A stretch of DNA of 64,000 nt, from assembly GCF_000178835.2 (NCBI RefSeq), contig NC_015275.1:3687001-3751000 (forward strand), in the 5' to 3' direction. Made by a program: the position numbers and the translations under genes. Position 1 is the first letter of the stretch. Every line of letters starts with the position of its first letter. This document shows positions 1-23,673 of the stretch, piece by piece. The notes below the pieces were generated by a model that made no database searches, was not told the origin of the DNA, and saw only the letters and a program-made list of their open reading frames with translations. The stretch comes from Cellulosilyticum lentocellum DSM 5427. Its GTDB lineage: Bacteria; Bacillota; Clostridia; Lachnospirales; Cellulosilyticaceae.

Positions 1-3000
1 GCATTCCTGCTGATACTGGATTACCATTTGCTCTTAGTGGTGTAAATCGGGTACGTCCATTTGCAAGATTAATACGTGTTGTATTAACCTTGGCCAGTTT
101 TTGACCTGACTGTAAATTAGCAGAGTTACCCGCTCCCCGAGATACTACTCCCTTTTTTAACCTTCCTAATTTACTACCAATATTGCTAACTGTTCTTGCT
201 GTTCCATATGCACCTGCTGCTGTACTAAATAAATTTACTTGGTATTTTACAAAATCCTCCGGTGATAACTCACCGCTTAATAATGGACCTGTCTGTGTAT
301 ATACACCATATACAGGTGCTGTTATAATATTTTGACTTGGATCAGAATTTGTTATGCCCCTCCATAATGTTGGAATAACCTCGTCTGGATATGCCATTGC
401 AAAGCCTGCACTTTCACCAATTCCTCTACATATGCTCTCAGCAGCTATAAAGGGCGTCATTAGATAAAGTGTTGTTTGTGTCAACCAGTTATCCAATTTA
501 TACGCCTGCATATCTAACTCATATTGTTCTTGCGTATAGACATATCTTGGTGTCAGCTGCTCTGCTAGATATTCTTCTGGTGGGACTCCCGCTTTTCGCA
601 TCATTGTCTTTGCTTCGTCTGGTATTCCTGTGTAAAGTCCAAAAGGATCAATCCCACTAATAGGGTTTCCATTTGCATAAGCAAAGCGATTAAGGGTTAT
701 GGCATTGTCTAAGCTTCCTTGGACAACATCTTGATTGATAAAGCGTTTAATCTCGGGATTATAGTACCTAGCCCTCATATAGTAGAGGCCATTAGCATCT
801 GTTTCTACACCATACTTTCCATTGTAGAGGAATGATGTAGTTACTTTGCCCGTCTTATTAAGCAATTCTCCGTATGGACCATAGGTGTAACTGGCTATTG
901 TACTGCCACTTTTATTAGTGATAGCTACGGTACTGCCTCTGTTATCAAAGTGATAGGTTGCGTATTCACCACCTTCTACTTGCATGATTAAGCCTAAGCC
1001 ATAAATGTACTGACGAACTGTATCGCCTTTCTTTTCCTCTATGACTCTTGAGAGCTGGCTACTAGTGGTGTCTACTACATAGGTTGTTTGTTTACCATTG
1101 GTGATCTGACCTATGCGATTATTTTCAGCATCGTATTGATAGGTTGTACCACCTGCCTCTATCAGTCTATTTCTAGCATCATATTTAAAGTCTACCATCT
1201 TGCCATCTAACGGACCGTAAATCATGTTACCGCTAGCATCATATTTCACTTCTATGCCATTGTAAGTCAGGAGTTTGTTACCCTTTCCATATGTCATAAC
1301 GGTTTCGCCATTGGTAATCTGAGTAGTAGCAACATTAACGCCTTCTTCTTCTTTGATTTTACCACCGGCATCATAGTCAAAGCTATAATTGATAATGATT
1401 TTTCCTGAGCTTGCTTTTTCTATAATGCTCTTAACCTGGTAAGCATCATCATAAGTCATTTCCCTTGTAGTCCCATTAGGTCGTGTGATTGTTCTAAGCT
1501 TGCCATTAAGGTCATATTGATAGTGGGTTTTGCCCCCGTTAAAGTCTATAACATCTGTAAGTAACCCTGAATGGTCATAGTAATAGGTTAGTACTTGTCC
1601 ACCTGGATAAGTTATTTGCTTCAGGTTACCTACTGCATCGTAGTCATATTTGATGATGTTGCCGTTAACATCCATATAGGTTTTGACACGATTAAGGGCA
1701 TCAAAGGTTCTAGTAATCGTTCCTGCTTTTGCTGCAATTACTTTTTCTAGATTGCCATTTTTATCATAAATGTAATTCGTGGTATCTACCTCATCTTGTA
1801 AGTACACGACCCGACCTGCACCATCATACTTATAAGTGGCTAACTGTCCTCGTGGATTAGTCACGGTCTCTAATAGGTTAACGTCGTTATAGGTGTAGGT
1901 GTACATGGTACGAATAGGTGTGGTTTCTTGTATAAGGTTTCCTACTACATCATATTTATAACTTTGTACGTTATTTTCTGGATCTGTGATACTTTCCACT
2001 TGCCCCTTTGGATTATAAGTAGCTGATGTAGTCACTGGTAAAAGGCGATCGGCTGTTGGTGGATCAACTACCTTAATCAGATTTCCTCTATTGTCACATT
2101 CCCTTTGCTTGATTTGATTCATGGCATCAATGGATTTAAAGAGACGATTCATGTTGTCATATTCATAGGTTGTTGTATAGCCTAGTCCATTGGTTGTGGT
2201 TTTTAAGTTAGAAGCTTCATCATAAACATTTTGCTGAACCAGGACATTGAAGCCATCATAAACAGATTTAACATTGCCACGTTCATCATACAGTGTTCTA
2301 GTAGTCCTTCCTTCTTCATCTGTAGCTAGTTCTATCTTTCCTATGTCATTGTACTTCATCTTTTTTACATAACCGAGAGGATTAGTAACGGTTAAGACTC
2401 TATTTTCATTGTCATACGTATAACGTGTGATTCCGCCTAATGCATCAGTTACTGTTTCTAGATTATCTAAGGTATCATAAGTGTAACTTGTAACATTTCC
2501 TTTGGCATCTGTAATCGTGCGTTGTCTTCCCCATTTATCATAAGTGTAAGAGGTCGTTTCTAATGCGCCATTGGTTGCTGTTAATACATTGCCAAGTACG
2601 TCATAGTTTTGGCTTGTTACATAACGTTTTGGATCTACTGTCTTTTCTAACTGTCCTAGCGCATCATAGTAATAGGTGTAAGTGTGATTATTGCCATCTG
2701 TTTGCGTCCTCACATGATTAGCATCATCATATGTATAGCTTGTGGTACCGGTCTGTGGTGTTGTCACTTCCGATACATTGCCGGCTGCATCATACCTATA
2801 GGATGTCATTCCATTATTTCTATCAAGTATCGTCTTAACTTGATTGTTTGCATTATAAGTCATTTGCTCTGTGGTGCCGTCTGCATACTTAGTGTATTTA
2901 GGTTGCCCTTTAATGGTATAGAAATACTCTGTGACATTACCCCTGGGGTCAATCTCTTTTACCTTGTTGCCCCATTTGTCATACTCATAACTTATAATTC

Positions 3001-6000
3001 CTTTACTATCTTTTTGTTTAAGTAGTAGGCCACGTTTATCATATTCATAGCTTACTTTATTGCCTGCTTGATCTATAGTCGAGAGCAGCTGTCCTACGGC
3101 ATTATAAATATAGGTAGTCACCTTTCCTTCTCTATCAGTGGTAGTCCTTGGATAACCATAACTATCATAGGTAACTGTTGTTGTATTTCCTTTGTAGTCC
3201 CTAGTTGATTTGATTAGACCTGCTTCTCTGTCATAAACAGCATTAACCGCTTTCCCTTCATAATAATCTTCTTTTGTCATAGCTTGTAAAAAGCCATTGC
3301 CATCATATACATAAGAAGTTATAGCTCCTGTTGGTAATGTCGTTGTCATAAGCTGGTTATCTGCTCTATAGGTATTTGCTGTTACGTTACCCTTAGCATC
3401 TGTGGTCGTTAATAAATTTCGCCTATCATCATAAGTATAAATAGTGGTATTGCCTAAAGCATCTATCACTTTAGTCGTATCACCGTAGTCATTATATTCA
3501 AATCGGCTAGTATGTCCATTGCCATCAGTGGCGCCTATTTTACGGTGATTTTCATTATAAGTAAAGTAGTAGGTGTTACCTAAGGCATCTACTTCCTTCA
3601 CTAACTGACCATCTTGATCTACTGTGCGATAGCTAGTATTGCCTACATCATCTGTAGTCTTAAGAATTATATAAGTTAAATCCCCTTCTTTTTTCTTTTC
3701 ATAGGCATATTTTTCAGTATAACCTTCAGGATAGGTTTGAGAAATAACACGTTTAGATTTGTCATATCCAATCTTAACAAAAGTATAACCTTCTGCATTA
3801 ATACCACTTTCAATTAAACCTTTGTTATTATAAGTAAATGTAGTGGTATTACCAATGGCATTGGTAATAGCCTCTAGTAACCCCTCATTATTATAACGTA
3901 AGCTGACATGGCGTCCTTTCGTATCACTGACAGTGGTTAACTTTTTATTAGAGTAATCTAAAATGATACTTTCACCAATACTTTGATCTGTTATAAGACA
4001 TACCTGTCCATCTTCATTATAATCTAGTGATAAGACCTGCCCTATCTTGTTCTTCATTTCTACAAGACGTCCTTGCTTATTATAGGTATGTACTTGGAAA
4101 TCAGAACGTTCTAGTACATAGTCTCCTTCTTTATTAATCGTTAATTTATCTCTTGTGGTCTGCCAATCATCTGCTAGGTAAGCCTTTTCGGTTTCATCAT
4201 AGGTATAGATGGTCCCTTGTCCAGGTCTCCAATAAATAATAACTTCTGTAGCTGACTTTTTCTGTACATAGGAATCAAATGTATGACTCCAGCCTTGACC
4301 TAATGCTGACTTCTTCGTTTGTTTGGAATTATATTCAATGCCAAAGTTTAAAGAATTCGAACCATTTACAGCAAGCAAAGTTTGATTTAATAGCTGCGCG
4401 CCAGTAACAATATCTATGCCTTCATCTGTAACAGCTTCTTGGCAGCTTGCATCTCTTAACCTACTATTACTTTGCTTAACAGGTAATAAAGTTACTTTTT
4501 TATTAATAGTTGTATTAAGCCCTGTGACAAACAGCTTTTTCAGTAAATATTCAGCTTCAAATCCTTCATCATTCTCCTCTGGAAATGTAATTTGAGTAGT
4601 GTACTGGAATTTCAATGTTTGGTTTGGATAAAATTCCTTTATTTTTACTTGTTCACCCAGTTCAAGTACATTGAGTTCTTCTGCATTTTCATAAGTAATT
4701 TCATAAACTGGAGAATCATAAGTTGCAACGATTTCTTCTCCTACTTGTTTATAAGATTCTATATCTCCTGGCGTGAGCATCATATCGTAAACTGGCTTAT
4801 CTGACACATTGGTTAATTCTATATCAATGACGTAATCTTCTCCTGAAATAGCTTTCTCTGGTGCTTCTACATACATATAAAGCGCCGAACTTCCCCATAC
4901 CTTGAGAGGCGATGCATTCTTAAAGGTGAGATGCTGTGGTAAACCAAAGGGCTCTAAAATACCATTGACGATTACATCTAATGTATAATCCCCTTCTTTG
5001 TCACCACGTACATACCAAACTGCTTCGCTTTGCTGTCCACCTGCTAAGTCTTCTAGTTCTTTTTCAAAGCTTTGTTCCTCTTTAGTAGGTGCTAGGCTTA
5101 AACCATCTGGCAAATTAAGCTTGGCTGTAATTTCATCTAAACTAATCTCTGGTACACTTTGGTTAATGATTTCTAGCCTTACTTCAAAAAATTCTTTAAG
5201 GCACTGGATTTCCATAGGGACTTTTAATACATAGATAGTAGGAACTTCTCCACTAGAGCCACCGCCACTTGGTGGTGTACCATAAACATAATAGTTACTA
5301 CCTCCTCCACTAAAGGCATAATAAGCTCCTTTACCACCACTACCTGTATACATTTGCCCACTTGAATTAACAAAGACAGTATGAGTTTCCTTCTCCACTA
5401 CACCCTCATGTTCTTTTTGCTCAAATTCAAAATTAATAGCCACTTCAAAGATCTGAAGATTATCAGGATCTTTAGTATCAATGCCTAAATCTTTGATTTC
5501 CTTAATATCAAGAGGAGTAATAATAACATCACCTTTGGTAATGCCTTCTTTTTTCACATCAAGGACAATGGTCTTAGTTTCTCCTGCTTCTAGATAAACA
5601 CTTTCGCCAGCTTCTCCCTTCTCTCCAGCAAAAGCAGCAATACTATAGTTATCCGGTATTAAGTTCACTTCTAGTTTTCCAAAAGAGGTCTTGTAAAATA
5701 AATTCTCTGTATTCACCGTGTTTGAAGCAATATAAATATTAGCATCACACACACTACTATCATAGCTATTTCTAACGTCTATAATAAGCTTTGCAACGGC
5801 TTCCTTTGGAAGTGGTTCAACCTCTATCACCTTCTTGGTTACATTACCGGCATAATCCTCGACTTCCAACTTCACTTCATATATAGCTTTTTTGTCAAAT
5901 AAATAGCTTACCGTGCTCTTTTCACCAATTAGTTTATCATTTATATACCATCTATAACTTTTTATACCACAGTTGTCAGTGGATGTACTTGCATCTAAGT

Positions 6001-9000
6001 AATAGGTTTCTCCAACAATTGCTTGGTTAAGGTTTACAAGTTCAGCCTTAGGTGCCTGTGTATCAGGTACATCATATGTGGTAAGGATTTGTTTTTCTTT
6101 TCCTTCATTTCCTTGTGCATCTATTGCTACTACACCATAGGTATATTGCTTTTGTGGCGTTAGCGCGTTATCAATGTATGTATTATTTTCTCCATAGTAT
6201 AATAACTGGCGCTTATTTCCTGTGTATCGATAAACCTTATATGTCGCCCCTTCTTCTTCACAATCAAACCAAACCTCTACTCCATTTTCAACAGTAGTTG
6301 CTTTAAAAGCCACATCACTAGGTGGTGTACGGTCAATATATATATCATATAATCTTTCTACACTTTTATTTCCTCTAATATCTATAGCTGTAATTCTAAA
6401 AGTTGCGATTCCTTGCCTAAGTGTACGTGTATCTATATTAAAATAGGTGCTAGCACTTGCTACTTTATTAAAGGATTGACTTGTTAATAAGATAAAGTTT
6501 TCTCTTCCTTCATCTTTTACTTCTATATTAATTTGTGCTAAATAGAAATCATCTTTTGCATAAATACTAAGTGCTTTCTTTAAGTCTATTTTATTATCCC
6601 AACTAGTAGACACAATAGTTGGTGGTGTTACATCTGCCATCACTTGATGTGTTGCATATATGGCTTCCTTTGATAAATTTCCAGCTTTATCTATAGTGTA
6701 TATACGGTATTCATAAGTTTCACCTGGGTCAACTAAGTAGTCTATCAAACTTTCTTCATTTGGTGGCCTTGTGGCAATGTTGGTGTAACTTGCTTCATTT
6801 TTTGCTCGTCTTTCTATCTTATACCCCACTATATCATTCATACTTTGTGGTTTAAGCCAATTTAAGACTAATGTGCCATTTTCTTCTTTTACCTCTAACT
6901 TTTCTAGGGCAGGTGGTGGCGTTTTATCTATCTCATTAATAAGAATCGGACATTTGTCATCTCCCATTGCTACTAAATCTGCTCCTACCACTCTTGCTCT
7001 AATATAGATTGTCCCCTCTGCTTCATCTTCTAAAGTCATTGAATAGGAACCTGTATAAGCTTTAGGTGCGCCTAAAATAGAATACGTAATGATTTCGCTC
7101 CAGTTTATCTTATCCCTTGATTTTTCTAAGATAACAGCCTTAAGGCCTTTATTATGATATAGTGAGAATTGAATAGGGATTGCTTCATTGTATGCACCTT
7201 GATAAGGTCCAAATACACTCACTCCTCCTATCGCATCTACTTTATTCATAAAGAATATTTGACTGATGCTTGTTAATTGAACTTCATTATTGTTATTATA
7301 CTTATAAATGGTGACTTGATAATTTTTCTCCGGCTCAAGATTAGTCTTTGTAAAGCTTCGTTGTGTTAAGTCTAATTCTTCATTACACACTGCTGCTCCT
7401 GTTTCACGATCAATAATCTCAACTATATAATGCCCTAACCTTGAAGTATTCGTTCCTTCCCAGTCAATTTTAGCCGTTCCATCCCCAATTGTAATGTTCT
7501 TTAAAACAAGTGTATTATGTACTATTTGATATGAACTGATTAGTTCATTTTTATTTCCTAAAATATCCTCAACTTCATACTTAATCTTGATTGCTGTTTG
7601 TTTATTAGGCATCTCTAAATGCCCACTTAATCTAGTAAGACTGCTATTATTAGCAAAGCTCTTCCATTCTTCACCTGCTACATCCCAATAATACATTGCA
7701 AGCGTCTTAATACCATCATTATCAATTCCTTCTACTTCAAATACTGTTTCACTACTAATAGTATTTTCCATCGGTGAAATTACATTAATCTGTGGTTTTC
7801 CTTCAAGATTAATACCCGCCGTTATGACCTCTGAGTATTCGCTTTGTTGTTCGAATTGATCTATTGCAGTTACTTTATAATAATAAGGTTTGCTATTTAA
7901 TACAGAAGTATCTCTAAATTGTAATGTTGAACTAGCTGGAATCTTCCCTATTACTTGAAATGTTTGATTATCCTCTGAACGATAAATTTGATAAGCTATA
8001 ACATCCTTCTCTATATTATTATCAAAAGAAAGTACTACACTTGTTTCATCTGCCTTACCAACTAAGTTATGAGGTGATTGGGGTGCGGTCCTATCTACAC
8101 TATATCTCGCTATCATTTCTGCATTATGGCCTACATTGTTATAAACTGTATAACGAATCTGATAATTATTAGATAGAAGCTCTTTAATCTGCCATTCATA
8201 GGTAAACCATTTATAGTCCTCATTGAAACGACTTACTTGTACATCAGTTGCTAATACTTCCCAATTCACTCCATCTAAAGAAACTTCGAATTTGGCGTAT
8301 CCATCCTCAATATTTTTATCATTTATGCAAACAATTTCAAGTTTTTGACCTTTCTCTCCACCTATAGTAGCTCCTTGATCTGGGGTAACCTGAACAAGCT
8401 GGATTGTACTAGCTGTAACAGCTAATTGCTCGGATAACTCTGATTTATTACCCGAACTATCTATAGCTTCTATTTGATAGGTGTAATTGGTATCTGCTTT
8501 GATTGCATTATCAATATATAAAGCAGTATCACTACGTCCAACTAGCTCTCCATCTCTATATATTTGATAATAAGCTACACTTATATTGTCTACAGAAGGC
8601 TCCCAATTGAAAATAGTCTTAGATTTAAGTCCTAAATGATCTGGCTTACTTGGTGGTTGTATATCCAGACTTGTATAGACTTCTAGTAAATTGCTTGCTT
8701 CGGCAGTATTACCTGCTTTGTCATAAGCTATGATTTGGTATGTATATGCTTTATTCGCTTCTAGCTTTGTATCTGTATACCGAGTAGCGGTTACATCTAT
8801 TAATTGCTCACCATTTCGATAGATGGTATAACCGCCAAAAGCATAGTTATCTTCGCTCTTATCCCATTCAAATGTAACCTCTGTATTATCTACGGCTACC
8901 ACTCTTACCTGTGTTATAGTAGGGCCCATATTGTCATAGATAACAGCCTTACTTCTATAGGATTCATTGCCATCATTATCAAAGGAAGATACTGTGTAAC

Positions 9001-9056: not shown

Positions 9057-9069
9057 TAGACACGATTTG
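9057..9069 (+). repeat. Left terminal inverted repeat of the IS3 element
   Basis: TAGACACGATTTG matches the reverse complement of the right end (TGGACACGATTTG) at 12 of 13 positions. The outer limit is uncertain because the neighbouring bases do not form a clear duplication. Confidence 0.7.
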
Positions 9070-9113
9070 ATATTAGTGATTATATTAAAGTAGACACAAA
9101 AGGAGGTGCCCAC

Positions 9114-10255: not shown

Positions 10256-10283
10256 TTATTGATCTCAACAAATTTTTTCGTTA

Positions 10284-12569: not shown

Positions 12570-15500
12570 TTATTTTGAATACCATGGTATTCTAGTTGGT
12601 TGCTTTACACCTTGTCCAGCTAAATTTGATAATGAATCTTCTAGCAAGTCATTTATAAGACTATCACCTGCGCCACCTGCTTTTAAAGCCTCTCGAGCAA
12701 TCCTTGTATGTTCATCCAATGTGTTGGGTCTACCGCTTTCATATAACTCTTTAAATAACTCACGTTGTTTTGATGTCATCTTTTGATGATTCAGTCCATT
12801 TCGTTCCATAAAATCTTGGCTTATAGAAAACCCTACATTAGGGTCATATTTAGAAGCTCCTTTAAAACCAGCCTTTGCATGTACATGATGGCCCCCAACA
12901 TCCCCATACTTACCAGTTCCTGAATATCTGCCACCCTTATCAGCAAAGAACTGTAAATCTAATTTATACTTAACATTTTTCGTCTGTTCTACAACAGTAT
13001 CTTCTACTGCTTCTTTAATATTTCGCTCTGTTGCCGTTTGTGCTACTTCTCTTATGTTTCTTTCTGTTGCTTGCTGTCCGGCTTCTCTTACTGTTCTTTC
13101 TGCCGTATTTTCTGTAACCGAACCCACTATTTTAAAGCTTGTTTTTTCTGCTAGCTGTTTTGCTATCTCTTTACCAGATTTAGCACCAACTTTACCAAGC
13201 ACATCTGATATGAGTTTTCCTGCTGTTTTTAAGCCTTTGCCTAAGTATTTTACACCTTTAAAGATTAGGTCCGCACCAAAAACACATCCTAAGTAGAATG
13301 CTGCTTTTCCATACTCCCCTTCCTTTAAATAATTAACTGCATTAACAGCATCTATTATATCTCCAAGTACTGGCATAAAGCCTGCTACATCTAACCAGAC
13401 CTCATTAATGCCTTCATCTTCTTCTTTTTCTGGGCTTAGTCCAAAGGGGTCGCTATAGTTGATTGGATTACCATTAACGTACGCATGACGATTTAAGCTT
13501 CTGCCATCTAAAACATTACCTACTATTACATCCGCATTCATAAAACGCTTGATATCTGGATTGTAGTATCGGGTACACATATAGTATAAACCATTACTGT
13601 CTGTTATGACACCTGAGCGTCCATTGTATTTAAAGATAACATCATTACTTCCTTGATGATCTACTAATTCACCATATGCTGTGTAACTAAATCTGTCTGT
13701 TACTTCGCCTTTACTATTTGTAAGTGCTGTAGTGCTACCTCTATTATCAAAGTGATAAATGAAATAATGATCTCCTTGCTCCTGGGCCAATAAACCTTTG
13801 CCATAGATGTACCATGTAACAGGTTCACCCTCTTCTATTTGTGCAATGGTCCTAGGCAGTTCATAGTTGCTATCCACTACATAAGCTGTTCGTTTACCCG
13901 CTTCAATAACAGCAATACGATTGTTTTCACCATCATATTCATAGATGGTGTCTCCTGCTCGAATCAGCCTATTTCTAGCATCATATTCAAATTCTACCCA
14001 TTTACCATTTAGTGGACCATACGTCAAGTTACCATCTTGATCATAAATAACTTTCTTACCATTATAAGTGCTTAACCTATTATCTTTATCATAAGTCATG
14101 GCTACTGTTTCTGAAACAACTGCTGAGGCTTTTACACCTCCTTGTGCTTTGGTTTCTTCTACAATATTGCCTGCTCCATCATAAGTGTAACTATAGCTAT
14201 TAATGACTTGTCCTGTACCCGTTTTATCAATAATGCCAACAAGCTGACCTAGAGCATCATACTGATTGATTTGAACACTGCCATCTGATCTTATCGTTTT
14301 TTCTAGTCTGCCATTAATATCATAACTATACTTGGTTTTTCTACCTGCCCAGTCCTCAACTTCTGTTACTTGATTCACTGCATTATAGCGATATTTAACT
14401 TCCTTATTATTGGAGTAAATCACTTTGGTGACATTTCCTACTGCATCATACTCATACCTAATAGCCATACCATTAGCTTCTATATATTTGATGACACGAT
14501 TCAAAGCATCATATTCTCTTTGAATACTATTTTTCTCATCTAATACTTGAAGGACATTGCCATTAGCATCATATCTATAGCTAACTTTACCTACTTCATC
14601 TGTAAAAGAAGTGATTCTGCCTGCTTTATCATAAGCATAGGTTGTATTTTGCCCTCTACCATTAGTACTACTTTTAAGTTGATCTATATTATTATACGTA
14701 TAACTATGGCTATATCCAAGACTAGTGGTCTCTTTTACCATTTGTCCTGACTGATTATAGGTATAAGTATAGCCACCACCTCCTGGATCTGAATAGGACT
14801 TCAATTTTCCACCTAAGGTATAAATGGCCTTAGAAATGCCTTTTTCAGGATCTTCTACCTGACTTACGTTGCCTGTCTGATCATAGGTTATTTTAGTGGT
14901 ACGATTTAAAGCATCTACTACCTCTATCACTTGATTTAATTGATTGTAAACATTGCTAGTAGTATATCCTAATGCATCTGTGGTACTTACAAGATTATTC
15001 AAGCTATCATAAGTATTAGTAAACAATCTAACCCCAGCAGCATCAAAGTCACTGATGAGATTACCATATTCATCATATTCTCTTCTCACAGTGCGACCTA
15101 AGGAATCAGTAGCACTTATTAAACGTCCTAAAGCATCATACTTAAAGGTAGTTGTGTTGCCATTTGCATCTGTAATAGCTACTACCCTATCTTCTTTGTC
15201 ATAAGTGTAGGTCGTTACATTACCTAATGCATCTGTTACTGTCGTTAAGTTATCATTTAAATCATAGGCATAGCTTGTCATATACCCTCTTGCATCAGTT
15301 TCATTTACAAGGCGTCCCCAATTATCATAAGCATAAGATCTAGTGTTGCCTTCTCCATCCTTACTCCAAATCAAATTACCTGCTTGATCATAGCCGTATT
15401 GTGTTAGATGACCTTCTGCATCTTCCTTACCTGTTAAATTCCAAGCTTTATCATAGCTGTATTTGGTGCTGCCTTTTCCTACGGTGTCCATAGTCCTTAA

Positions 15501-18500
15501 TTTTGTGTTTTTAAAATAGCCATAAATAACTTTTTCACCATCTGGTAAAGTCATTGCATCTAAGCTGCCTCTTGTGTCATAGTGGAAAACAGTTATCGCA
15601 CCTTTTGTATCTACGGTTTTAATGAGATCTCCTATATAATTATATTCTTTTAATTCAAAAGAACCATCGGGATAAATAGTTTTAATGAGTCTATCATTGC
15701 CATCATAAATATAGTGGATTGTATTTCCTTCACAATCTATGGCTTTAACCAGATTATTATTACCATCATATTCAAAGTGTGCGGTGTTCCCTTTACTACC
15801 TGTTATAGTGAGCTGATTACCTCTGCTGTCATAGGTATAGGAAGTTTTATAACCTAATGCATCTGTAAGACTTAATAGGTTTCCTTTATGGTCATATTCA
15901 TAAGTAGTTGTATTACCTTCTCTATCCGTAGTTGTTTTAAGCCTACCAGCTTCATCATATGTCATATGATTCGCATTACCTCTAGAGTCAGTAACACTTG
16001 TTAATAAACCATTTTTGTAATCATATTTGATTTTTCCTAAGCCTACTACCTCTTCTGATAAAATCCGGCTGTACTCATCATATTCATATTGAGTCACTTT
16101 ACCAGACGGTTCCCTCATGGTTAATATTTGATTGTTTTCATTATAGGTAAAGTAAGAAGCTTCTCCTTCTTCATTAACAATACTGGTTACATTTCCATTG
16201 CCATCATAAGCCATATATGTAACTGTATTTTCTGGATCAGTTATTTTAGTAACCTGATTATTCCCATTATACTCATAGGTTACTTCAACATCTCCATTGG
16301 TGTCAGATACCTGATTACCTTTGCTATCATAAGTTAATGTTCTTACCTTTGTTCTTGCTTCACTTACTTCTTCTGTTTCCATAATGAGAAGGCCATCTCG
16401 ATTATAAACATAAGTTTTATTATGACCTAGTCTATTTTTTACTGTTACTATATATCTCCAGAAGCTTTTATCATCATAAGTAAAAGTAGCAAGTTCATTA
16501 CCTGACCTAGCATCATCTTGAATAAGTACCCTTCCTTTTTCATCATAAGTATTCGTCAAATAGGTAATGCCCTCTGCATTGGTCATTGTATGAATGTGAT
16601 ATTTACCTGTATAAGTATAAGTTTCAGTCTTTCCATTCATATCTGTCATACTTACTAGCTGACGGTCAGAATTATAATCAAACTGAACTATTCTGCCTAC
16701 TTGGTCTGTTACACTTCTTAAAAGTGTTTGTCCATCATAATTAAAGGTTAATCTAATATTGCTATTTCTTTCAGATACAGAAGAAAGAACGTCATCTTTG
16801 TAGCTTAAGTCTAAAATACTTCCACCCTTAGGTTGAATACTGGTGAGTCTACCTTTATTATTAAAGGTAAATTCCTGTTTATTAACATCTGTATAAATAT
16901 ACTGTTCTCCTGACTTGACACACTGTACATCTTTTAAGTCTGGTGAATTAGAGGTATATATACCATTTCCACTCTTATCAAAAAGAAAGAGTACATTAAC
17001 TGGTGACAAGTGAAGTACTAATACCTTTGTATTGCCTTCGATTTGTTCTAACTTCATTTCATAGTTATGGTACCACCCTGGCCCCATTTGTTCAGGTGTT
17101 TCGTCTTCTCCCTGTTCTTCTGGCGTTAATGATGAATAATAAGCTTCGAAAGTAACTTGTCCTAAACCTTGAAGCGCCATTAGTGTTTTTGTAGTCTCTT
17201 GTCCTCCTGTAACAACGTTAACTGGGTCTTCCACTAATTCTGGCTCTGCTATGCGGTATTGTGGATTATGTGCTGGAATAACAGAAATACTTACCGGAAT
17301 GTCCATGGACTGAGAAGTTACATAGGCCTCAATAAGCTTATTATATTTTCCATCTGGTGCACCTATACTATTATTGTATACTAAATATATACTTTCTCCA
17401 GGTTCAAGTACTTCTACAGTTATAGCTTTATCACTCTCTTCAATACCTTCTATATTAGCAAAATCATGAATATCTAAATCTGGGATATGGACTTTATCTA
17501 TCTTCATTTTCTCGCCTTCTTGGCTTGAAAATTCATCATATTCTTTTCCTACTTGATTAGATCTATCGTTCTCACCTGCCCAGTCTAAATAACCTCCCAT
17601 ACAATACGTTCCAATGGCACTTGATTGCTCAGTTCCGGTCATCCATTGTAAATTATAAATAGGCTCTGAGCTAGTATTAATAATTTGGAAATAAACATAA
17701 TAGGGTACACCGGTATATGCTGCATCTTCTACTTGTACGTTAACTGCTAGTCCTCCTGGCTTAGACACAGTTACAGGTTCAGATGTTCTAAATATTGCGC
17801 TAATCTTCTTTCTGAATGGCATGAGCATACCATTATAATTAACATCAATATTATATTCACCGGGACTATCTCCTCTTACAAACCAGCTATATTCTGCTTT
17901 TTCGCCCCCTGCTAAGTCATCTAGTTTTACTTCTGCCATTTGATTTCCTTGGTCATCTACTACACTTTTGTTACCACCTAGCATTTGAACTAGAGAGAGT
18001 CCTGGCGGTAATTGAATTTCTATAGTAGAATCTTGAACTACAAATTGTGAATCACACACATTTTGCACAGTTACAGACACATTAAAGAATTCTTTTAGCC
18101 AACTTATTTTCTGAGGTACTGTAATAGTAGAAATAGCTGGTGGCTCATTACTCCCCTCGGGGGCCGGTATAGCTTGTATATATGTTGAAGTACTAGCATT
18201 TCCGGAATAATTTCTTAGGGGACCTACTACATAATTACTAGCATTAGCGCCACCTCCTCCTCCACTCTCATTAGTACTACCATGATATATTATTTCTCCT
18301 TTTGAATTACAAATAATAGGTAAATCTAATTCTTGAAATGTTAAATGAATATTAAAACTAAAAGAGTGTTGATTGTCTGGATTTGAAAGATCTATACCTG
18401 CCTCTTGCATTTCTTCCATGGTCATTTTATGAACTTGGATATCTCCAATAATAGGCTCACCTTTCGGTAAACGAATCGTTTGTTCACTTACTCTTCCTCT

Positions 18501-20345
18501 CGCTACCTTCATATTCACTTCTTTAGGTAAGTAATTAGTAGCATAGGCAGCAATATTATAGTTTCCATCTCTTTGGTAAATAGATACCATTCCTGATTGA
18601 TCTGCTCGTAAGATAATTAAATCTTCTGATCTGATACTGGGTGCATCAACATATACTAAAGCATTCGGAATAGGTAGTCCTGTTTCTTGATCTAACACTT
18701 TTAAACGAATTTCTCCTGTTAAATGTGCTGAATAAACATAGACATTTATACTTGCTGAATCTGTATTACCATAAGCATCTTGTACGGTTAACCTAGTTTC
18801 ATAGACACCTTCTTCTTCAAATACATGTTTCGGAGCTATTCCTGCTCCTTGTTTACCATCACCAAAGTCCCATTTATAACTCACAATCTCATCATTATCA
18901 CTTGATAACGAAGCATCAAATACCACTGCTCTTCCTGTCATTGCTGCCATACTATATCCTAGTCTAGCTGTTGGTGCATAGGGGTCTTGAGCTAGTGGAA
19001 TAACTGTTATTTCATTACTATTGCTCTCTCTACCATAAATATCCCTAGCCGTTATTTTATACGTGTAGGCTTTTTGGGGCGAAATCATTTTATCTATATA
19101 TTCAACTTGCTCAGTTTGAGCGATTAATGTAAAATCTCCATTTAGCCCTTCTTTTCTATATATTTTATAGCTTCGAATTAAATGGGCATCTTGCTCTACT
19201 TTCCAATTAAGTTGTACCTGCCATGGTCCTGGCTGTCCACTTATCGTTGGTGCTGGCAACTTCCCTGTATTTAACTCATACGATACCTTCATATCTATAC
19301 TTCTATTTCCTGTTGAATCTATTGCATAACAACGTAGGTTATAAATACCACTTTCAAGTTTATCTGTTTCCCACTTAAATTCAAATATACCTGATTTTTC
19401 ATCAGTCGCTATGGTGTCGATATTATTCCATTCCAGTTCTCCTTGCTTTTGATAGTCTAATACCACCTGCCCCAACTTATAATTATCATATATAGCTACA
19501 CTTATAGTTGGATTAATAGCTATTTTAGCATTGTTACTTGGTGCAATACTTGTAATAGTCGGTGCCTGAATATCATTAGAAGCTATTATTTCTACTTCCT
19601 TTGAAAATTCACTACGATTTCCTGCGCTATCTATACAGTTGATTTTATACTTATAATTCTGTTTAGGTTTTTTATCTGGTTCTCTATAATAAAGCGCTTG
19701 TAAATTAGCAGCTACTTGCTTATATGTAGCTTCTCTCTCATCATATTTATAGACATCGTAGCCTACTATATCTTCTTCTTGACCTTGCAACCAAGTTAAT
19801 ACTATTCCTTCAACATCTTCTTCCACCTTTAGCCCTAGTGGCACCTGTGGCGCTGTACGATCTACAACATATTCTACAAATGACGCCTGTTCATTCTCTA
19901 TACTCCTATTTCCTTCATTATCTACAGCAATCCCTCTTATAAATATACTTCCTTCATTAAAACTTAGTAGGGATAGTGTAGCACTAGCTTGAGCCTTTTT
20001 TTCATTATTAATATTTGTACTAGCAAACTCTTGCCAGTTTAAACAATCTAAAGAATACTGAAAGATAATATTCTGTAATGCATGATTATCTTCTGCCTGT
20101 ATAGAAATGTTTACTTCTTTATTCAATCTACTAGAACTTGGAGAAATTGCTGTGATACAAGGTATTTCACCATCATTAGTCGTGCGTATACAAAGTTCTT
20201 CTGATATACCTGCTTCATTTTTCCATATGTCGTATCCTATAACTTGTACAAGATAATCTGTTTGTGGCACTAAATTACTTATATTAGTTCCTAATACATT
20301 GCCCGTCTCAATACTAGTAATAAGACTTCCATCTTGCGGATTTTT
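12570..20345 (-). CDS. Giant Rhs/YD-repeat protein, part downstream of an in-frame TAA
   Basis: This continues the 20,346-22,718 gene in the same frame after a single TAA (together about 3,382 codons). Numbering from the Met at 22,718, the order is: the remainder of the split FN3 domain, further FN3/Ig-like domains, a PKD domain (about 1243-1325, with YKWDFGDG), a carboxypeptidase-regulatory-like domain (about 1330-1410), a Gly-rich patch, DUF11-like segments and a Rhs core opening at DPVNVVTGG (about 1830). YD repeats follow to about 3020, with the core end at RYYNPDIKRF...DPFGLS (about 3090). Then come a hydrophobic pre-toxin helix region, the LDLQFFA linker (about 3249) and a toxin-like tip of about 120 residues with GGHHVHAKA. 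The HH pair suggests an HNH/Endo VII-type nuclease, which is inference. A GTG at 20,270 has no good ribosome site. Without readthrough this part would lack a signal peptide. Confidence 0.85.
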   Translation of the reverse strand, partial: KNPQDGSLITSIETGNVLGTNISNLVPQTDYLVQVIGYDIWKNEAGISEELCIRTTNDGEIPCITAISPSSSRLNKEVNISIQAEDNHALQNIIFQYSLDCLNWQEFASTNINNEKKAQASATLSLLSFNEGSIFIRGIAVDNEGNRSIENEQASFVEYVVDRTAPQVPLGLKVEEDVEGIVLTWLQGQEEDIVGYDVYKYDEREATYKQVAANLQALYYREPDKKPKQNYKYKINCIDSAGNRSEFSKEVEIIASNDIQAPTITSIAPSNNAKIAINPTISVAIYDNYKLGQVVLDYQKQGELEWNNIDTIATDEKSGIFEFKWETDKLESGIYNLRCYAIDSTGNRSIDMKVSYELNTGKLPAPTISGQPGPWQVQLNWKVEQDAHLIRSYKIYRKEGLNGDFTLIAQTEQVEYIDKMISPQKAYTYKITARDIYGRESNSNEITVIPLAQDPYAPTARLGYSMAAMTGRAVVFDASLSSDNDEIVSYKWDFGDGKQGAGIAPKHVFEEEGVYETRLTVQDAYGNTDSASINVYVYSAHLTGEIRLKVLDQETGLPIPNALVYVDAPSIRSEDLIILRADQSGMVSIYQRDGNYNIAAYATNYLPKEVNMKVARGRVSEQTIRLPKGEPIIGDIQVHKMTMEEMQEAGIDLSNPDNQHSFSFNIHLTFQELDLPIICNSKGEIIYHGSTNESGGGGGANASNYVVGPLRNYSGNASTSTYIQAIPAPEGSNEPPAISTITVPQKISWLKEFFNVSVTVQNVCDSQFVVQDSTIEIQLPPGLSLVQMLGGNKSVVDDQGNQMAEVKLDDLAGGEKAEYSWFVRGDSPGEYNIDVNYNGMLMPFRKKISAIFRTSEPVTVSKPGGLAVNVQVEDAAYTGVPYYVYFQIINTSSEPIYNLQWMTGTEQSSAIGTYCMGGYLDWAGENDRSNQVGKEYDEFSSQEGEKMKIDKVHIPDLDIHDFANIEGIEESDKAITVEVLEPGESIYLVYNNSIGAPDGKYNKLIEAYVTSQSMDIPVSISVIPAHNPQYRIAEPELVEDPVNVVTGGQETTKTLMALQGLGQVTFEAYYSSLTPEEQGEDETPEQMGPGWYHNYEMKLEQIEGNTKVLVLHLSPVNVLFLFDKSGNGIYTSNSPDLKDVQCVKSGEQYIYTDVNKQEFTFNNKGRLTSIQPKGGSILDLSYKDDVLSSVSERNSNIRLTFNYDGQTLLRSVTDQVGRIVQFDYNSDRQLVSMTDMNGKTETYTYTGKYHIHTMTNAEGITYLTNTYDEKGRVLIQDDARSGNELATFTYDDKSFWRYIVTVKNRLGHNKTYVYNRDGLLIMETEEVSEARTKVRTLTYDSKGNQVSDTNGDVEVTYEYNGNNQVTKITDPENTVTYMAYDGNGNVTSIVNEEGEASYFTYNENNQILTMREPSGKVTQYEYDEYSRILSEEVVGLGKIKYDYKNGLLTSVTDSRGNANHMTYDEAGRLKTTTDREGNTTTYEYDHKGNLLSLTDALGYKTSYTYDSRGNQLTITGSKGNTAHFEYDGNNNLVKAIDCEGNTIHYIYDGNDRLIKTIYPDGSFELKEYNYIGDLIKTVDTKGAITVFHYDTRGSLDAMTLPDGEKVIYGYFKNTKLRTMDTVGKGSTKYSYDKAWNLTGKEDAEGHLTQYGYDQAGNLIWSKDGEGNTRSYAYDNWGRLVNETDARGYMTSYAYDLNDNLTTVTDALGNVTTYTYDKEDRVVAITDANGNTTTFKYDALGRLISATDSLGRTVRREYDEYGNLISDFDAAGVRLFTNTYDSLNNLVSTTDALGYTTSNVYNQLNQVIEVVDALNRTTKITYDQTGNVSQVEDPEKGISKAIYTLGGKLKSYSDPGGGGYTYTYNQSGQMVKETTSLGYSHSYTYNNIDQLKSSTNGRGQNTTYAYDKAGRITSFTDEVGKVSYRYDANGNVLQVLDEKNSIQREYDALNRVIKYIEANGMAIRYEYDAVGNVTKVIYSNNKEVKYRYNAVNQVTEVEDWAGRKTKYSYDINGRLEKTIRSDGSVQINQYDALGQLVGIIDKTGTGQVINSYSYTYDGAGNIVEETKAQGGVKASAVVSETVAMTYDKDNRLSTYNGKKVIYDQDGNLTYGPLNGKWVEFEYDARNRLIRAGDTIYEYDGENNRIAVIEAGKRTAYVVDSNYELPRTIAQIEEGEPVTWYIYGKGLLAQEQGDHYFIYHFDNRGSTTALTNSKGEVTDRFSYTAYGELVDHQGSNDVIFKYNGRSGVITDSNGLYYMCTRYYNPDIKRFMNADVIVGNVLDGRSLNRHAYVNGNPINYSDPFGLSPEKEEDEGINEVWLDVAGFMPVLGDIIDAVNAVNYLKEGEYGKAAFYLGCVFGADLIFKGVKYLGKGLKTAGKLISDVLGKVGAKSGKEIAKQLAEKTSFKIVGSVTENTAERTVREAGQQATERNIREVAQTATERNIKEAVEDTVVEQTKNVKYKLDLQFFADKGGRYSGTGKYGDVGGHHVHAKAGFKGASKYDPNVGFSISQDFMERNGLNHQKMTSKQRELFKELYESGRPNTLDEHTRIAREALKAGGAGDSLINDLLEDSLSNLAGQGVKQPTRIPWYSK

Positions 20346-20348
20346 TTA
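20346..20348 (-). other. Premature in-frame TAA in the giant Rhs gene
   Basis: The reading is GTT TAT TAA AAA AAT CCG: codon 791 is TAA and the frame stays open for another 2,591 codons. TAT to TAA is the simplest change. A seven-A run overlaps it, so a sequencing or assembly error should be excluded. Confidence 0.85.
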
Positions 20349-22718
20349 ATAAACTATAAATTTTTCGAAATCCTCAATATCAAGTTTATCCCATTTTAAC
20401 ATCATTTGTGTACTTGAAGTTTCTACTGTATTAAAGGTAATTGTTTGACAATTAGGCGCAACAATCGTATATGTTCTTATAACTTCTTCTATATTAGTGT
20501 TATCAGAAGTATCTGTAGCAATTGCCTTAATAGTTAAAGTACCTTCCTTTTTCGGATTTGTGAAACTAAATATAGCTTCTGATTGATTAGAAACTGTATC
20601 GATCTCTATCCATTTGCCTTCTTCATTTAAATATTGTAAGGTAGTACTTTTAATACCGATATTATCCTGTGTTCTTACAGTAACAACAACTTCTTTTCCT
20701 ATTTTACTTTTATTAGAAGGGACTATCCCTATTACCTCTGGTGGAGTTGTATCTTTCAAAGCTATAGCCATTATAGATTCACTTGCTTCTCCTATAATGC
20801 CAAACCGTGTTTTAGTATATAATTTATAGTAATATTCTTTCTCTGCTTCTATAGCCTTATCCAAATAACTATTAGCCTTTCCCGTTTCAATTGTAGCTAA
20901 CTTAGTATATACTCCATCTCTTACTTCTGATCTATGTATTTCATAATAAGCAATACTATCATCATCAATTTCTTGCCAACTAATTTCAATTTGTTTTTCC
21001 CCCGGTTCAGCTTTTAAGCTGATTACTTGAGAAGGTTTTGTCGTATCAACTACATAGTTTAATTCTTTAAGTATGTGAATACCTCTTTCATCTTCCATGC
21101 TTATTCTAACTACATAATTCCCACTTATAATATCCTCTAAATCCCATATAGCACTATAGCTAATACCTCCTTCTATCTGGCTCCCCTTGATATTTTCCTC
21201 TGGAATACTATAATACTCACTCTCATTAGTATATTCCACTTTTAAATTGCATTCCTCTAAACTATTATTAGTCATATAATTTATCTTAAAGTTTACACTA
21301 TCACCACCAATAGTACTTTGATTAGTTGGAGTCACTTGTGAAATATAGGGTTCCATAATAATGGTATTTACTTGATTACCATTTTCAGATTGTATCTCCC
21401 CTTCATAAATTGCAGCAACTGTATAATTATAGAGGGTCTGATAATCAATATTAGTATCTTTAAAGGTGTTTTCTTGAGTTTCCTCTATTTCTACACCATT
21501 TCGATATATCTTATAGCTTTCTATTGGAAGATTCGTATATGGCTTATACCACTGTAACTTAATACTATAATCTTTCTGCTCTTTTATTAATAATGTAGTT
21601 ACCGGTAAAGGTTCATTAACCTTAGTTCCTCGTTTATAGTTAATTATCCCTTCACTATTAAACTTAATATTTATAATTTCCGGCAAAATACTATAGATGC
21701 TAAATTCATCTGTTTCTTTAGGAATAAAATAAGAGTTCGGGCGACTAATAGCCCTTGATATAACATCTCCACCTGCCCATGCACTAATAAAGTCCCCATT
21801 TTCTCCCTCTACACTATTTCCTTTTTTCCAATATCCCTCATTCCATACAGCAAAATTTTCATGTCTTGGACTTCCATCTTTTACATAATCAATACTGGCA
21901 AATGTTGTAAAAAATGCTCCTTGTGAATCTTCTGTTAGAATAGACCATGGTTCCTCATACTTATAATAATTTGTTGACCATGTAATATTTATCTCTTCAA
22001 TTCCTAAAGCATCTATCTGCTCCTTTTTATTTACAATAGCATTATATACATTTTCATTACTTTCATCTGAGCTTTCATAGTAATACTTATCCTTATTTAT
22101 TAATTCATACGGCTTAATTGTACCGTTTTCATTAACTTGTATAATATCAAGCATCATATAAGTATTGCTTGCTGGCATATTTAGTTCTACTGAATGTTCA
22201 CCACTGAATAACTGGGGGCAAATATAATATATTGTATGTCCCCATCCATAGTTTCCCACATATGGAATAGTATCAACCAGTTCTCCATCAATAATAACTT
22301 GAACCCCTTGATTTCTGCCATAATGGCTCTGTACAGCAAGTATAAATTGAGATCCTATAAAATTAAACCTCGCTCTCCCCTCCTTGCCTGTTCTTGAATT
22401 ATGTGTTCCTCCATTTAAGAAATTTCCATGGTCACCATTATGCCAATCATCCATATTTTCATACCAGATATTTTTATTATCATCATCAAACACATTCCAT
22501 CCTGGAGCATTAAAGTTAACTTGGATACCTAATTTAGGTATATACTCACTTAATTGATTTATCTGTAATGCAGATGCTGTGGTAGTTGTAACATCCCCCT
22601 GTGTTGCTTTTATACCAATATCATTATTTGTTATATCAATAGTCTTTTCTCCATAAGTATATTGTAAAAGTAAGATAATAGTTAGCATGATACAAATTAC
22701 TCTTTTTTGCATTTTCAT
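20346..22718 (-). CDS. Giant Rhs/YD-repeat protein, N-terminal part ending at a premature TAA
   Basis: This part has 790 residues. A signal peptide (MKMQKRVICIMLTIILLLQY) is followed by a carbohydrate-binding-like beta domain (about 75-200, with MDDWHNGDHG, GWGHTIYY and HSVELNMP). Next come a Tyr/Glu-rich segment, an FN3 domain (about 370-450), an Ig-like domain (about 455-555), an FN3 domain (about 556-645) and an Ig-like domain (about 650-745). The final FN3 domain stops mid-strand at EDFEKFIVY. The next codons in the same frame (KNPQDGSLIT ... VPQTDYLVQVIGYD) complete that FN3 domain. The TAA therefore looks like a one-base change from a Tyr codon beside an A7 run. GGGGAA lies before the start. 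The YD-stalk gene ends 52 bases upstream. Confidence 0.85.
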   Translation of the reverse strand: MKMQKRVICIMLTIILLLQYTYGEKTIDITNNDIGIKATQGDVTTTTASALQINQLSEYIPKLGIQVNFNAPGWNVFDDDNKNIWYENMDDWHNGDHGNFLNGGTHNSRTGKEGRARFNFIGSQFILAVQSHYGRNQGVQVIIDGELVDTIPYVGNYGWGHTIYYICPQLFSGEHSVELNMPASNTYMMLDIIQVNENGTIKPYELINKDKYYYESSDESNENVYNAIVNKKEQIDALGIEEINITWSTNYYKYEEPWSILTEDSQGAFFTTFASIDYVKDGSPRHENFAVWNEGYWKKGNSVEGENGDFISAWAGGDVISRAISRPNSYFIPKETDEFSIYSILPEIINIKFNSEGIINYKRGTKVNEPLPVTTLLIKEQKDYSIKLQWYKPYTNLPIESYKIYRNGVEIEETQENTFKDTNIDYQTLYNYTVAAIYEGEIQSENGNQVNTIIMEPYISQVTPTNQSTIGGDSVNFKINYMTNNSLEECNLKVEYTNESEYYSIPEENIKGSQIEGGISYSAIWDLEDIISGNYVVRISMEDERGIHILKELNYVVDTTKPSQVISLKAEPGEKQIEISWQEIDDDSIAYYEIHRSEVRDGVYTKLATIETGKANSYLDKAIEAEKEYYYKLYTKTRFGIIGEASESIMAIALKDTTPPEVIGIVPSNKSKIGKEVVVTVRTQDNIGIKSTTLQYLNEEGKWIEIDTVSNQSEAIFSFTNPKKEGTLTIKAIATDTSDNTNIEEVIRTYTIVAPNCQTITFNTVETSSTQMMLKWDKLDIEDFEKFIVY

Positions 22719-22770: not shown

Positions 22771-23673
22771 CTAATAAATAAGTAGTTGTTTTAATGTATT
22801 ATCCCAACTGTACTTCAATTCAAAGGCCCTACATATATCTCCAATAGGCAAATACGTCCTGCCATCTATAACTTGAGCTTTCTCACTAAGCTTCACCTGT
22901 TCCCCATTTACAAGCATGTAATCTTTATTGATGCCTATTTTAATCTGCTTTTCTCCTTGAATGACTGCTTGCTTATTATTCTTATCCCATATAATTTGAT
23001 CAGGTGAAATATTAAGTACATAAGTAATGTATCTAATAGGAACCATTAAACGATTATTTTTTGATACAAACACAGAAGCATCCATCTCTATCTTCTGATC
23101 ATCAATTTCTAATACTTTATTTTTTAATGTAAAGAGTAGTTTAGTATACTTGGGACCATTTCCATTGTTTTCGTTATTATTATTCTGGTTTCCACTGTTC
23201 CCACTATTTCCGTTGTTATTACCTTGGTTTCCATTACCCCCATTATTTCCATTGCCATTACTCTGGCCTCCGCTATTCCCATTGTTATTACCTTGGTTTC
23301 CACTCCCCCCACTATTTCCGTTGTTATTACCTTGGTTCTCGCTATTCCCACTACCTCCATTGTTATTACCCTGGTTTCTATTCCCCTCATTATTTCCGTT
23401 GTTATTTCCCTGGTTTCCGCTATTCCCACTACCTTCATTGTTATTACCTTGGTTTCCATTATTTCCGCTATTACTATCCTCTTTTTTAGTTCCCCCTGTA
23501 GTAGTAACCCCTATAATATTGCCCGCTTGATCATATGTGTATTCTATTACAACCCCAGACTCATATGTAACTTTTGTAAGACGATTCAAATCATCATATG
23601 TATATGTTTCTGCTTGTACTAGTATCCCCATACAATAGACACTTAATAAGAAAACTCCCCAATGCTTTTTCAT
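22771..23673 (-). CDS. Secreted YD-repeat/stalk-domain protein (copy 1)
   Basis: This 300-residue protein has a signal peptide (MKKHWGVFLLSVYCMGILVQ), one YD-type unit (YTYDDLNRLTKVTYESG, then IEYTYDQAGNIIGVTTTG) and a Gly/Asn linker of about 110 residues. The C-terminus is a copper-amine-oxidase-N1-like stalk domain (RLMVPIRYITYVLN, DGRTYLPIGDICRAF, YSWDNTLKQLLI). The start has AAAAGGGGAAAAT before ATG. It heads the first Rhs cassette. Compared with copy 2, the YD and stalk parts are conserved while the linkers differ completely (Gly/Asn versus Glu/Lys), so the two ends are under selection and the linker is a spacer. No metal-binding cluster is evident; 'copper amine oxidase' is only the family name. 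Confidence 0.85.
   Translation of the reverse strand: MKKHWGVFLLSVYCMGILVQAETYTYDDLNRLTKVTYESGVVIEYTYDQAGNIIGVTTTGGTKKEDSNSGNNGNQGNNNEGSGNSGNQGNNNGNNEGNRNQGNNNGGSGNSENQGNNNGNSGGSGNQGNNNGNSGGQSNGNGNNGGNGNQGNNNGNSGNSGNQNNNNENNGNGPKYTKLLFTLKNKVLEIDDQKIEMDASVFVSKNNRLMVPIRYITYVLNISPDQIIWDKNNKQAVIQGEKQIKIGINKDYMLVNGEQVKLSEKAQVIDGRTYLPIGDICRAFELKYSWDNTLKQLLIY
23150..23480 (-). repeat. Gly/Asn-rich tandem coding repeat (linker)
   Basis: The repeating units encode GNQGNNNG, GNSG and GGSG types, about 12-30 bases each, and separate the YD unit from the stalk domain. The opposite strand gives long Pro/Leu- or Ile/Thr-rich frames, which are artefacts of the repeat. Confidence 0.85.

What the first reader, a model, noticed from the sequence alone, without database searches (positions are those of the whole stretch)
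1..23673. Duplicated two-gene cassette: small secreted YD-stalk protein plus giant Rhs protein
Twice in this window a small secreted protein with one YD repeat, a low-complexity linker and a stalk domain lies directly upstream of a giant secreted Rhs/YD protein. In copy 2 only 17 bases separate the genes. Between copies the YD unit and stalk domain are conserved, whereas the linkers are unrelated (Gly/Asn versus Glu/Lys). This suggests a fixed job for the two ends. One hypothesis is that the lone YD strand docks onto or caps the Rhs beta-cage, while the stalk domain holds it at the cell surface. I know of no described Rhs accessory protein with this make-up.
Basis: partly seen in the sequence, partly recalled or inferred. 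Interest (0 to 1): 0.75.

Follow-up and report, generated by a model that had tools for sequence, protein, structure and literature searches.

The report
Single-YD adaptor proteins for Rhs giants
Next to the gene of a giant secreted Rhs (probable toxin) protein, this bacterium and relatives encode a small secreted protein that carries one copy of the Rhs building block plus an exchangeable part that may bind surfaces, which looks like a made-to-measure holder for the giant.

Summary
Both small genes encode a signal peptide (by eye), one YD unit (PF05593), unrelated linkers and a stalk domain (PF07833), 52 and 17 bases upstream of a giant Rhs. Both Rhs genes are broken as assembled.

The pairing recurs. 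Of 53 loci with the Rhs pre-core domain, 41 had readable upstream DNA: a single-YD secreted gene precedes 18 of 24 with a YD core (16 directly) and 0 of 17 without one. Two loci set aside probably lack it too. A profile of the unit finds nothing small-like in 80 genomes of a sister family without this Rhs type.

Only the 37-residue unit is constant. The other part swaps: stalk, membrane tail, aromatic tail, CBM25, CBM26+dockerin, CBM77, leucine-rich, GLUG-like, or nothing. In 14 of 18 the unit starts 3-4 residues after a likely signal cleavage site; in 2 it ends the protein.

Best reading: an in-trans adaptor whose YD unit docks on the Rhs shell edge while the other module tethers the complex. 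Docking is inferred; structure prediction was off. Presence is clustered on the tree. My searches found no printed description. New variant of a known kind.

The parts
10602..11339 (-). small gene B: signal peptide, single YD unit, Glu/Lys-rich linker, PF07833 stalk domain (245 aa)
11163..11273 (-). 37-residue YD unit of small gene B, directly after the likely signal cleavage site
   Evidence: (G000:C1:3698163-3698273)
10306..10584 (-). 5' piece of Rhs-B (signal peptide region), cut off by the insertion
9050..10300 (+). IS3-type insertion in Rhs-B (approximate limits); reading frames 9114-9398 (HTH_Tnp_1) and 9629-10255 (rve)
   Evidence: the name IS3-type is my inference from these two domains
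1..9049 (-). Rhs-B downstream of the insertion: fn3-like repeats (by eye), pre-core domain (about 4525-5548), YD core; runs off the window
22771..23673 (-). small gene A: signal peptide, single YD unit, Gly/Asn repeat linker, PF07833 stalk domain (300 aa)
23500..23610 (-). 37-residue YD unit of small gene A
   Evidence: (G000:C1:3710500-3710610)
20346..22718 (-). 5' frame of Rhs-A: signal peptide, fn3 domain
12570..20270 (-). main frame of Rhs-A: PKD, pre-core domain (17331-18470), DUF6531, YD core, Rhs_assc_core, polymorphic tail
12192..12548 (-). 118-aa gene just after Rhs-A, immunity-like by position (DUF6547 below its Pfam cut-off)

Best explanation
The small protein is a dedicated adaptor for the giant Rhs encoded next to it. 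Both are exported by their own signal peptides. The lone YD unit, a pair of beta strands of the kind that builds the Rhs shell, stands at a free end of the mature small protein and adds to an open edge of the partner's YD shell (inferred). Linker and second module then hold the complex on a surface: cell wall (stalk), membrane (hydrophobic or aromatic tail), polysaccharide (CBM25/26/77), or a dockerin-receiving scaffold (inferred from domain names). Shown: recurrent adjacency, constancy and protein-level constraint of the unit, its position at a free end, exchange of the other module, and no recognisable wall-binding domain in the partner Rhs N-parts tested. Inferred: binding, edge pairing and tethering.
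For: (1) Adjacency: of 24 readable loci with a YD core 18 have the gene upstream on the same strand, 16 directly and 2 with other ORFs between; of 17 with the same pre-core domain but no YD core 0 have it (Fisher p 7e-7; 15 of 21 against 0 of 17 without the window pair and L028, p 4e-6; 18 of 26 or 15 of 23 if two set-aside loci are taken as absences, p 3e-6 and 1.3e-5). In 80 genomes without the pre-core domain 15 have YD matches, none above 51.5 bits and none in a frame under 526 aa. (3) Constancy: left out in turn, 15 of 17 units outscore every unit of 18 Rhs cores (some partial), L097 only by 0.1 bit; pN below pS in 91 of 91 pairs of 14 units, synonymous sites near saturation. (4) Free end: first YD aromatic (or its counterpart) 3-4 residues after an A-X-A-like site in 14 of 18 (by eye), unit at the C-terminus in L093 and L097. 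(5) Swapped module. (6) Six partner Rhs N-parts of 18, and Rhs-A, show fn3, PKD, Ig-like and weak other matches and no wall-binding family. (7) L060: the small protein shares a 304-residue module with its own Rhs and with none of the 15 others compared (43% identity). (8) G280, without the small gene, has two C-type lectin domains in the Rhs itself, while its sister G286 has two CBM77 in the small protein. (9) Unit and Rhs distances correlate, r 0.68, Mantel p 0.0002, 16 pairs.
Against: No contact was shown; structure prediction was off. Six of 24 readable Rhs loci with a YD core lack the gene, and two more probably do: in G1276 (upstream side cut by a contig end) and for the second Rhs of G1355 (C19) no further strong unit exists anywhere in the assembly; G277, whose core was not seen, has none either. 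Two partners (L059, L060) have units no more like the others than Rhs units are. On the tree presence is clustered, and the independent-pairs test does not reach significance (median p 0.5). Correlated distances are expected from linkage alone. Long stretches of the Rhs N-parts, often the first 1,800 residues, match no Pfam family, so an unknown anchor in the Rhs itself cannot be excluded. G1273, G870 and G1335 lack the gene and show no substitute anchor (G1335's first frame only). Some tails and linkers have no known function. Secreted N-terminal YD units occur in a Deltaproteobacteria and a Nitrospirota contig with no Rhs downstream, though L025's upstream side is a contig end.
Confidence: 0.55

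Rival explanations
1. Folding or secretion helper: the unit seeds or caps the Rhs shell while it folds outside the membrane, and the second module only keeps the helper near the exit site; no lasting tether.
For: Gene order (helper first), own signal peptide, unit at the very N-terminus, one partner reduced to signal/linker plus unit (L093). Cognate upstream export factors are reported for S. suis WapA (SecF-like, SrtB; PMC12704120, passages).
Against: CBMs, dockerin and leucine-rich modules are odd for a pure chaperone; 6 of 24 readable YD-core loci lack it.
Confidence: 0.22
2. Independent co-expressed surface protein: it binds surfaces by itself and the YD unit is an old relic or generic hairpin without contact with the Rhs.
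For: Lone secreted YD units occur without an Rhs downstream in other phyla; two units (L059, L060) have drifted.
Against: The unit is the only part kept while everything else is replaced, is constrained at protein level, and was not found in 80 genomes without this Rhs type.
Confidence: 0.13
3. Self-protection or regulation: the YD unit competes for the shell and blocks premature opening or autocleavage, so that the toxin stays caged until contact.
For: Rhs cores autocleave in known relatives (PMC13018210, passages); an added strand at the shell edge could gate this.
Against: Does not explain the variety of binding modules; nothing here measures cleavage.
Confidence: 0.06
4. Chance neighbour or split 5' end of the Rhs gene.
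For: Both Rhs genes in the window are broken, so mis-annotation was worth considering.
Against: Recurs in 18 of 24 readable YD-core loci, under 14 genus codes plus L028, with its own signal region while the Rhs keeps one.
Confidence: 0.02

Closest known systems
Streptococcus suis Rhs/WapA with upstream SecF-like protein and sortase SrtB (PMC12704120, passages read)
   Same: giant secreted Gram-positive Rhs with dedicated upstream helper genes for export and surface display
   Different: there the wall-binding LysM part lies in the Rhs itself and the helpers are a membrane protein and an enzyme; here the helper is a small secreted protein with a YD unit
Bacterial Teneurin-like proteins (PMC13018210; abstract, passages and one section read)
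   Same: secreted YD shells with variable adhesion modules and toxic tails
   Different: their adhesion and anchor modules are reported in the same chain; no NHL propeller was found in Rhs-A; no lone-YD partner is mentioned in the parts read
Two-chain Rhs cage of ABC (Tc) toxins (recalled, nothing fetched)
   Same: an Rhs shell built from two polypeptides suggests that YD strands can join between chains
   Different: there each chain gives a large part of the shell; here one 37-residue unit
Dockerin-cohesin coupling and pilus donor-strand exchange (recalled)
   Same: a short unit joins exchangeable modules to a large assembly
   Different: unrelated sequence; no cohesin-like receiver identified; the proposed receiver is the YD shell
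Cu_amine_oxidN1 / stalk proteins (PF07833)
   Same: the C-terminal domain of small genes A and B
   Different: no oxidase domain; none of the other 15 small proteins scanned matches PF07833

Membership tests
RHS_repeat PF05593 (small proteins) | match above Pfam's cut-off of 22 bits | tested here: met
   17 of 17 small proteins scanned, 24 to 51 bits; one pair unit in each of 16 by pattern, though Pfam counts two stretches in L093 and L096; L028's frame-broken copy and G1245 C211 were not scanned
Rhs/WapA polymorphic toxin (large proteins) | signal peptide, YD core, Rhs_assc_core, polymorphic tail with a small gene after it | tested here: met
   Rhs-A: RHS_repeat E 2.9e-120, TIGR03696 E 2.5e-15, tail and a 118-aa gene; signal peptide by eye; toxicity and immunity not tested
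Rhs/WapA polymorphic toxin (large proteins) | wall-binding domain in the same chain | tested here: not met
   no wall-binding Pfam family in Rhs-A or in six partner N-parts; long unmatched stretches remain
Bacterial Teneurin-like proteins | FN-plug, NHL propeller, YD shell | tested here: inconclusive
   no NHL match in Rhs-A; FN-plug not looked for; no structure
Copper amine oxidase | oxidase catalytic domain | tested here: not met
   only PF07833 and PF05593 in small A and B
WapA export helpers (SecF-like, SrtB) | membrane transporter fold or sortase domain | tested here: not met
   no such Pfam match in the 17 small proteins scanned
T6SS Rhs chaperones of the EagR kind (recalled) | cytosolic chaperone fold, T6SS genes nearby | not tested
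   the small proteins carry signal regions; T6SS genes were not searched for

The most novel reading that the evidence does not exclude
The single-YD unit is a general coupling tag: a free-end beta hairpin that completes or extends the edge of an Rhs shell in the manner of donor-strand exchange, letting these bacteria refit one giant toxin platform with any surface module (wall, membrane, starch, pectin, cellulosome scaffold) by swapping a small upstream gene instead of re-engineering the giant.
Probability: 0.35. Interest if true: 0.85.

Novelty: new variant of a known kind. Interest (0 to 1): 0.7.

Why it matters
How giant Gram-positive Rhs proteins are held at the surface and aimed is poorly known, and the described cases that I read of carry their anchor in the same chain. 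A separate, exchangeable adaptor with a conserved 37-residue docking unit would explain display and targeting across many genera, and gives a short defined element whose binding to an Rhs shell can be tested directly.

Tried and rejected
Recent duplication of the cassette: rejected, since the Rhs long pieces are 32% identical. Chance adjacency or a split 5' end of Rhs: rejected by recurrence. Copying of the unit from the partner's own Rhs: in 14 of 16 the unit's median similarity to other small units exceeds its best match in its own Rhs, exceptions L059 and L060 (the cores of L081, L082, L089 are partial and L091's is nearly absent). Stalk domain as the defining part: rejected; in the genome 22 places match the small-B query at E 0.001 or better, and the 19 besides A and B match its stalk half (one also the linker) and not the YD end. 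Searching with the whole small protein reached mostly stalk proteins, so the search was turned round to the Rhs pre-core domain. DNA-level role of the unit: disfavoured by pN below pS in 91 of 91 pairs, L059 and L060 left out.

Rows dropped: 12 of 53 loci were set aside before the counts because the upstream side was a contig end, too short or not fetched (G277, G153 with 252 bases only, G216-C10, G1276, G1355-C19, G1108, G315, G438, G317, G969; G228 and G421 not fetched). G1276 and G1355-C19 have a YD core and no further strong unit in their assemblies, so they are probable absences; counts with them are. G1224 was counted as having a YD core although its contig ends just as the core begins. 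G1245's small gene and the first part of its giant lie on a contig other than its YD core, and I take them as one locus. G216-C124 was counted as core-less on only 2296 bases before the contig end. L028 and the window pair were found through the small gene itself, so the count was repeated without them. Profile A3 was built from seven loci of which six have the small gene, so sampling leans towards their kin. The A4 profile leaves out L059 and L060. In one search I first took the G1245 C211 match for an Rhs piece; one search shows it to be a further signal + YD frame that overlaps the start of a YD-core piece without pre-core domain. It is outside the 53 loci. Among the other weak matches in frames under 450 aa, four looked at are multi-unit Rhs pieces (G1224 C15, G286 C87, G1355 C4, G1335); the match in G286 C66 (520 aa, 27.5 bits) stayed unclear.
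Full report
WHAT IS IN THE WINDOW. The window is G000:C1:3687001-3751000 of a 4,714,237-base single-contig genome. From recall of its size I think this is Cellulosilyticum lentocellum, order Lachnospirales; no call confirms it, and the genomes searched below bear codes, not names. On the minus strand lie two cassettes. Small gene A (22771-23673) ends 52 bases before Rhs-A, and small gene B (10602-11339) ends 17 bases before Rhs-B. Each small protein has a hydrophobic signal region (by eye), one RHS_repeat stretch and a Cu_amine_oxidN1 match. Between A and B the YD end is 51% and the stalk domain 60% identical, and the linkers do not align. Both Rhs genes are broken as assembled: Rhs-B by an insertion with HTH_Tnp_1 and rve frames, Rhs-A by a frame break. 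The two Rhs long pieces are 32% identical, so the pairs are old.

HOW THE FAMILY WAS FOUND. Searching with the whole small protein mostly returned stalk proteins. One scan of named genome contigs gave four loci. One of them, L028, is an uncultured Lachnospiraceae MAG in which a signal + YD gene (frame-broken in the MAG) lies 16 bases before a giant Rhs and carries a membrane tail in place of the stalk. Two (L025, L026) show a signal + YD unit without an Rhs downstream, and L027 is a stalk protein. I then searched with a domain of the large protein that lies before the Rhs core (alignments A2 and A3). It was found in 10 of 295 order, 12 of 391 class and 5 of 398 phylum genomes (the window's genome counts in each), and in 4 of 48, 2 of 38 and 19 of 299 genomes of three further families and 4 of 61 of one genus (sets overlap). 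With the two window copies and L028 this gave 53 loci, of which 41 had readable upstream DNA.

THE ASSOCIATION. Upstream DNA was read, and the presence of a YD core was scored. With YD core: 18 of 24 have a secreted single-YD gene upstream on the same strand (window A and B, L028, G285, G286, G189, G1059, G1052, G1172, G1363, G1184, G1157, G1224, G1263, G1355-C2, G1207, G1117, G1245). Six do not: G1273, G280, two of G1380, G1335, G870. Without YD core: 0 of 17. In 16 of the 18 the small gene is the direct neighbour; in G1355 and G1245 a membrane-protein-like gene of roughly 420 codons (and in G1355 one more ORF) lies between. Fisher p is 7e-7, or 4e-6 without the window pair and L028. Two loci set aside, G1276 and the second Rhs of G1355, probably lack the gene, since their assemblies hold no further strong unit; counted so, 18 of 26 or 15 of 23, p 3e-6 and 1.3e-5. 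These are not independent events: on the pre-core tree (quick method) presence is clustered and the independent-pairs test is not significant.

THE REVERSE TEST. The 15 matches of 62-80 bits are all such small genes, including one I had not seen (G1245 C277). L059's and L060's units score only 32-33 bits, at Rhs level. One more match, G1245 C211 at 48.6 bits, is a further signal + YD frame that overlaps the start of a YD-core piece lacking the pre-core domain, so it too lies next to Rhs sequence. Of the other weak matches in short frames, four looked at are multi-unit Rhs pieces. In 80 genomes of family code f5 (probably Lachnospiraceae) without the pre-core domain, 15 have matches, all at most 51.5 bits and all in frames of at least 526 aa, so none is small-like. 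Outside the phylum, L025 and L026 are the exceptions named above.

WHAT IS CONSTANT AND WHAT CHANGES. The unit aligns without gaps over 14 rows with 10 invariant columns. Left out in turn, 15 of 17 units score above every unit in 18 Rhs cores, L097 by 0.1 bit; L059 and L060 do not. In 91 of 91 pairs of 14 units pN is below pS, with synonymous sites near saturation, so selection acts on the protein. In 13 of 17 the first YD aromatic (Ile in L165) stands 3 to 4 residues after an A-X-A-like site, likewise in L028; in L093 and L097 the unit ends the protein (2 and 5 residues after it); L086 and L096 have spacers. Cleavage sites were judged by eye. The remainder changes freely: stalk (A, B), membrane tail with basic end (L028, L085, L096), Phe/Trp-rich amphipathic or hydrophobic tail (L057, L081, L082, L087, L091), fn3-like (L089, by eye), CBM25 x3 (L086), CBM26 x2 + dockerin (L097), CBM77 x2 (L059), leucine-rich (L165), GLUG/M26-like (L060), Lys/Ala-rich (L095), nothing after the unit (L093). 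In L060 the module is shared with its own Rhs at 43% identity over 304 residues and with none of the 15 other Rhs compared.

WHY AN ADAPTOR. Printed accounts of Gram-positive WapA and Teneurin-like proteins put the wall-binding module in the giant chain. The partners here lack a recognisable one: six N-parts of 18, plus Rhs-A, show fn3, PKD, Ig-like and weak other matches only. Long stretches match nothing, so an unknown anchor is not excluded. In the sister pair G280/G286 (SH-aLRT 99) the Rhs without small gene has two C-type lectin domains of its own, and the one with it has CBM77 in the small protein and no lectin match in the N-part scanned. That is one pair only; the other Rhs without the gene show SpaA-like (G1380), RCC1 (G870) or nothing special (G1273; G1335, first frame only). 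A unit at a free end that resembles the strands of the partner's shell suggests edge addition; this step is inference.

WHAT IS NOT SHOWN. Binding, tethering, toxicity and expression. Correlated distances between unit and Rhs (r 0.68, Mantel p 0.0002, 16 pairs) are expected from linkage alone.

KNOWN OR NEW. Ten paper searches of the open library returned no paper whose title or abstract start described a lone-YD partner of Rhs; five of the ten returned no paper at all. I read the outline, passages and one section of PMC13018210 and passages of PMC12704120. Subscription journals and preprints are not in that library, so absence in print is not proven. The large proteins belong to the known Rhs kind; the adaptor is, as far as I can see, an undescribed variant of how such a system is built.

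Noticed in passing
window 9050-10300: IS3-type insertion splits the start of Rhs-B in this genome.
   Followed up: partly
window about 20270-20346: Rhs-A changes frame at an A-rich stretch; mutation, phase variation or base-calling error cannot be told apart here.
   Followed up: no
window about 11670-11930; L024 12995-13417 and 12285-12806: Orphan Rhs tips and tail-like ORFs lie after the Rhs genes, as in other Rhs loci that swap C-terminal tails (recalled).
   Followed up: no
L061, L064, L067-L073, L075, L077, L078, L098-L101, L104: Giant proteins share the Rhs pre-core domain but have no YD core: 17 of 41 readable loci. The domain is therefore a module of its own, of unknown role.
   Followed up: partly
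L090:8061-9275 (-), L095 reverse complement 2978-4249, L165 reverse complement about 4160-5423: A membrane-protein-like gene of roughly 420 codons sits between small gene and Rhs, or directly before the Rhs where the small gene is missing (L090). The L090 copy has no Pfam match; that the three are alike was judged by eye.
   Followed up: partly
L166:6349-6729 (G1245 C211): A second small signal + YD frame of G1245 overlaps the start of a YD-core piece that lacks the giant's N-part: a deletion between the two genes, or an assembly fault.
   Followed up: partly
L060:3028-6150 (-) and the Rhs after it: Small partner and Rhs share an N-terminal module found in no other Rhs compared.
   Followed up: partly
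L025:262-1566; L026 around 192-400: Deltaproteobacteria and Nitrospirota contigs encode a signal peptide directly followed by one YD unit, with no Rhs downstream.
   Followed up: no
window 43368-43462: Nine-base tandem repeat inside a gene with GH10, CBM4_9 and CBM3 domains, apparently a repeat linker.
   Followed up: no
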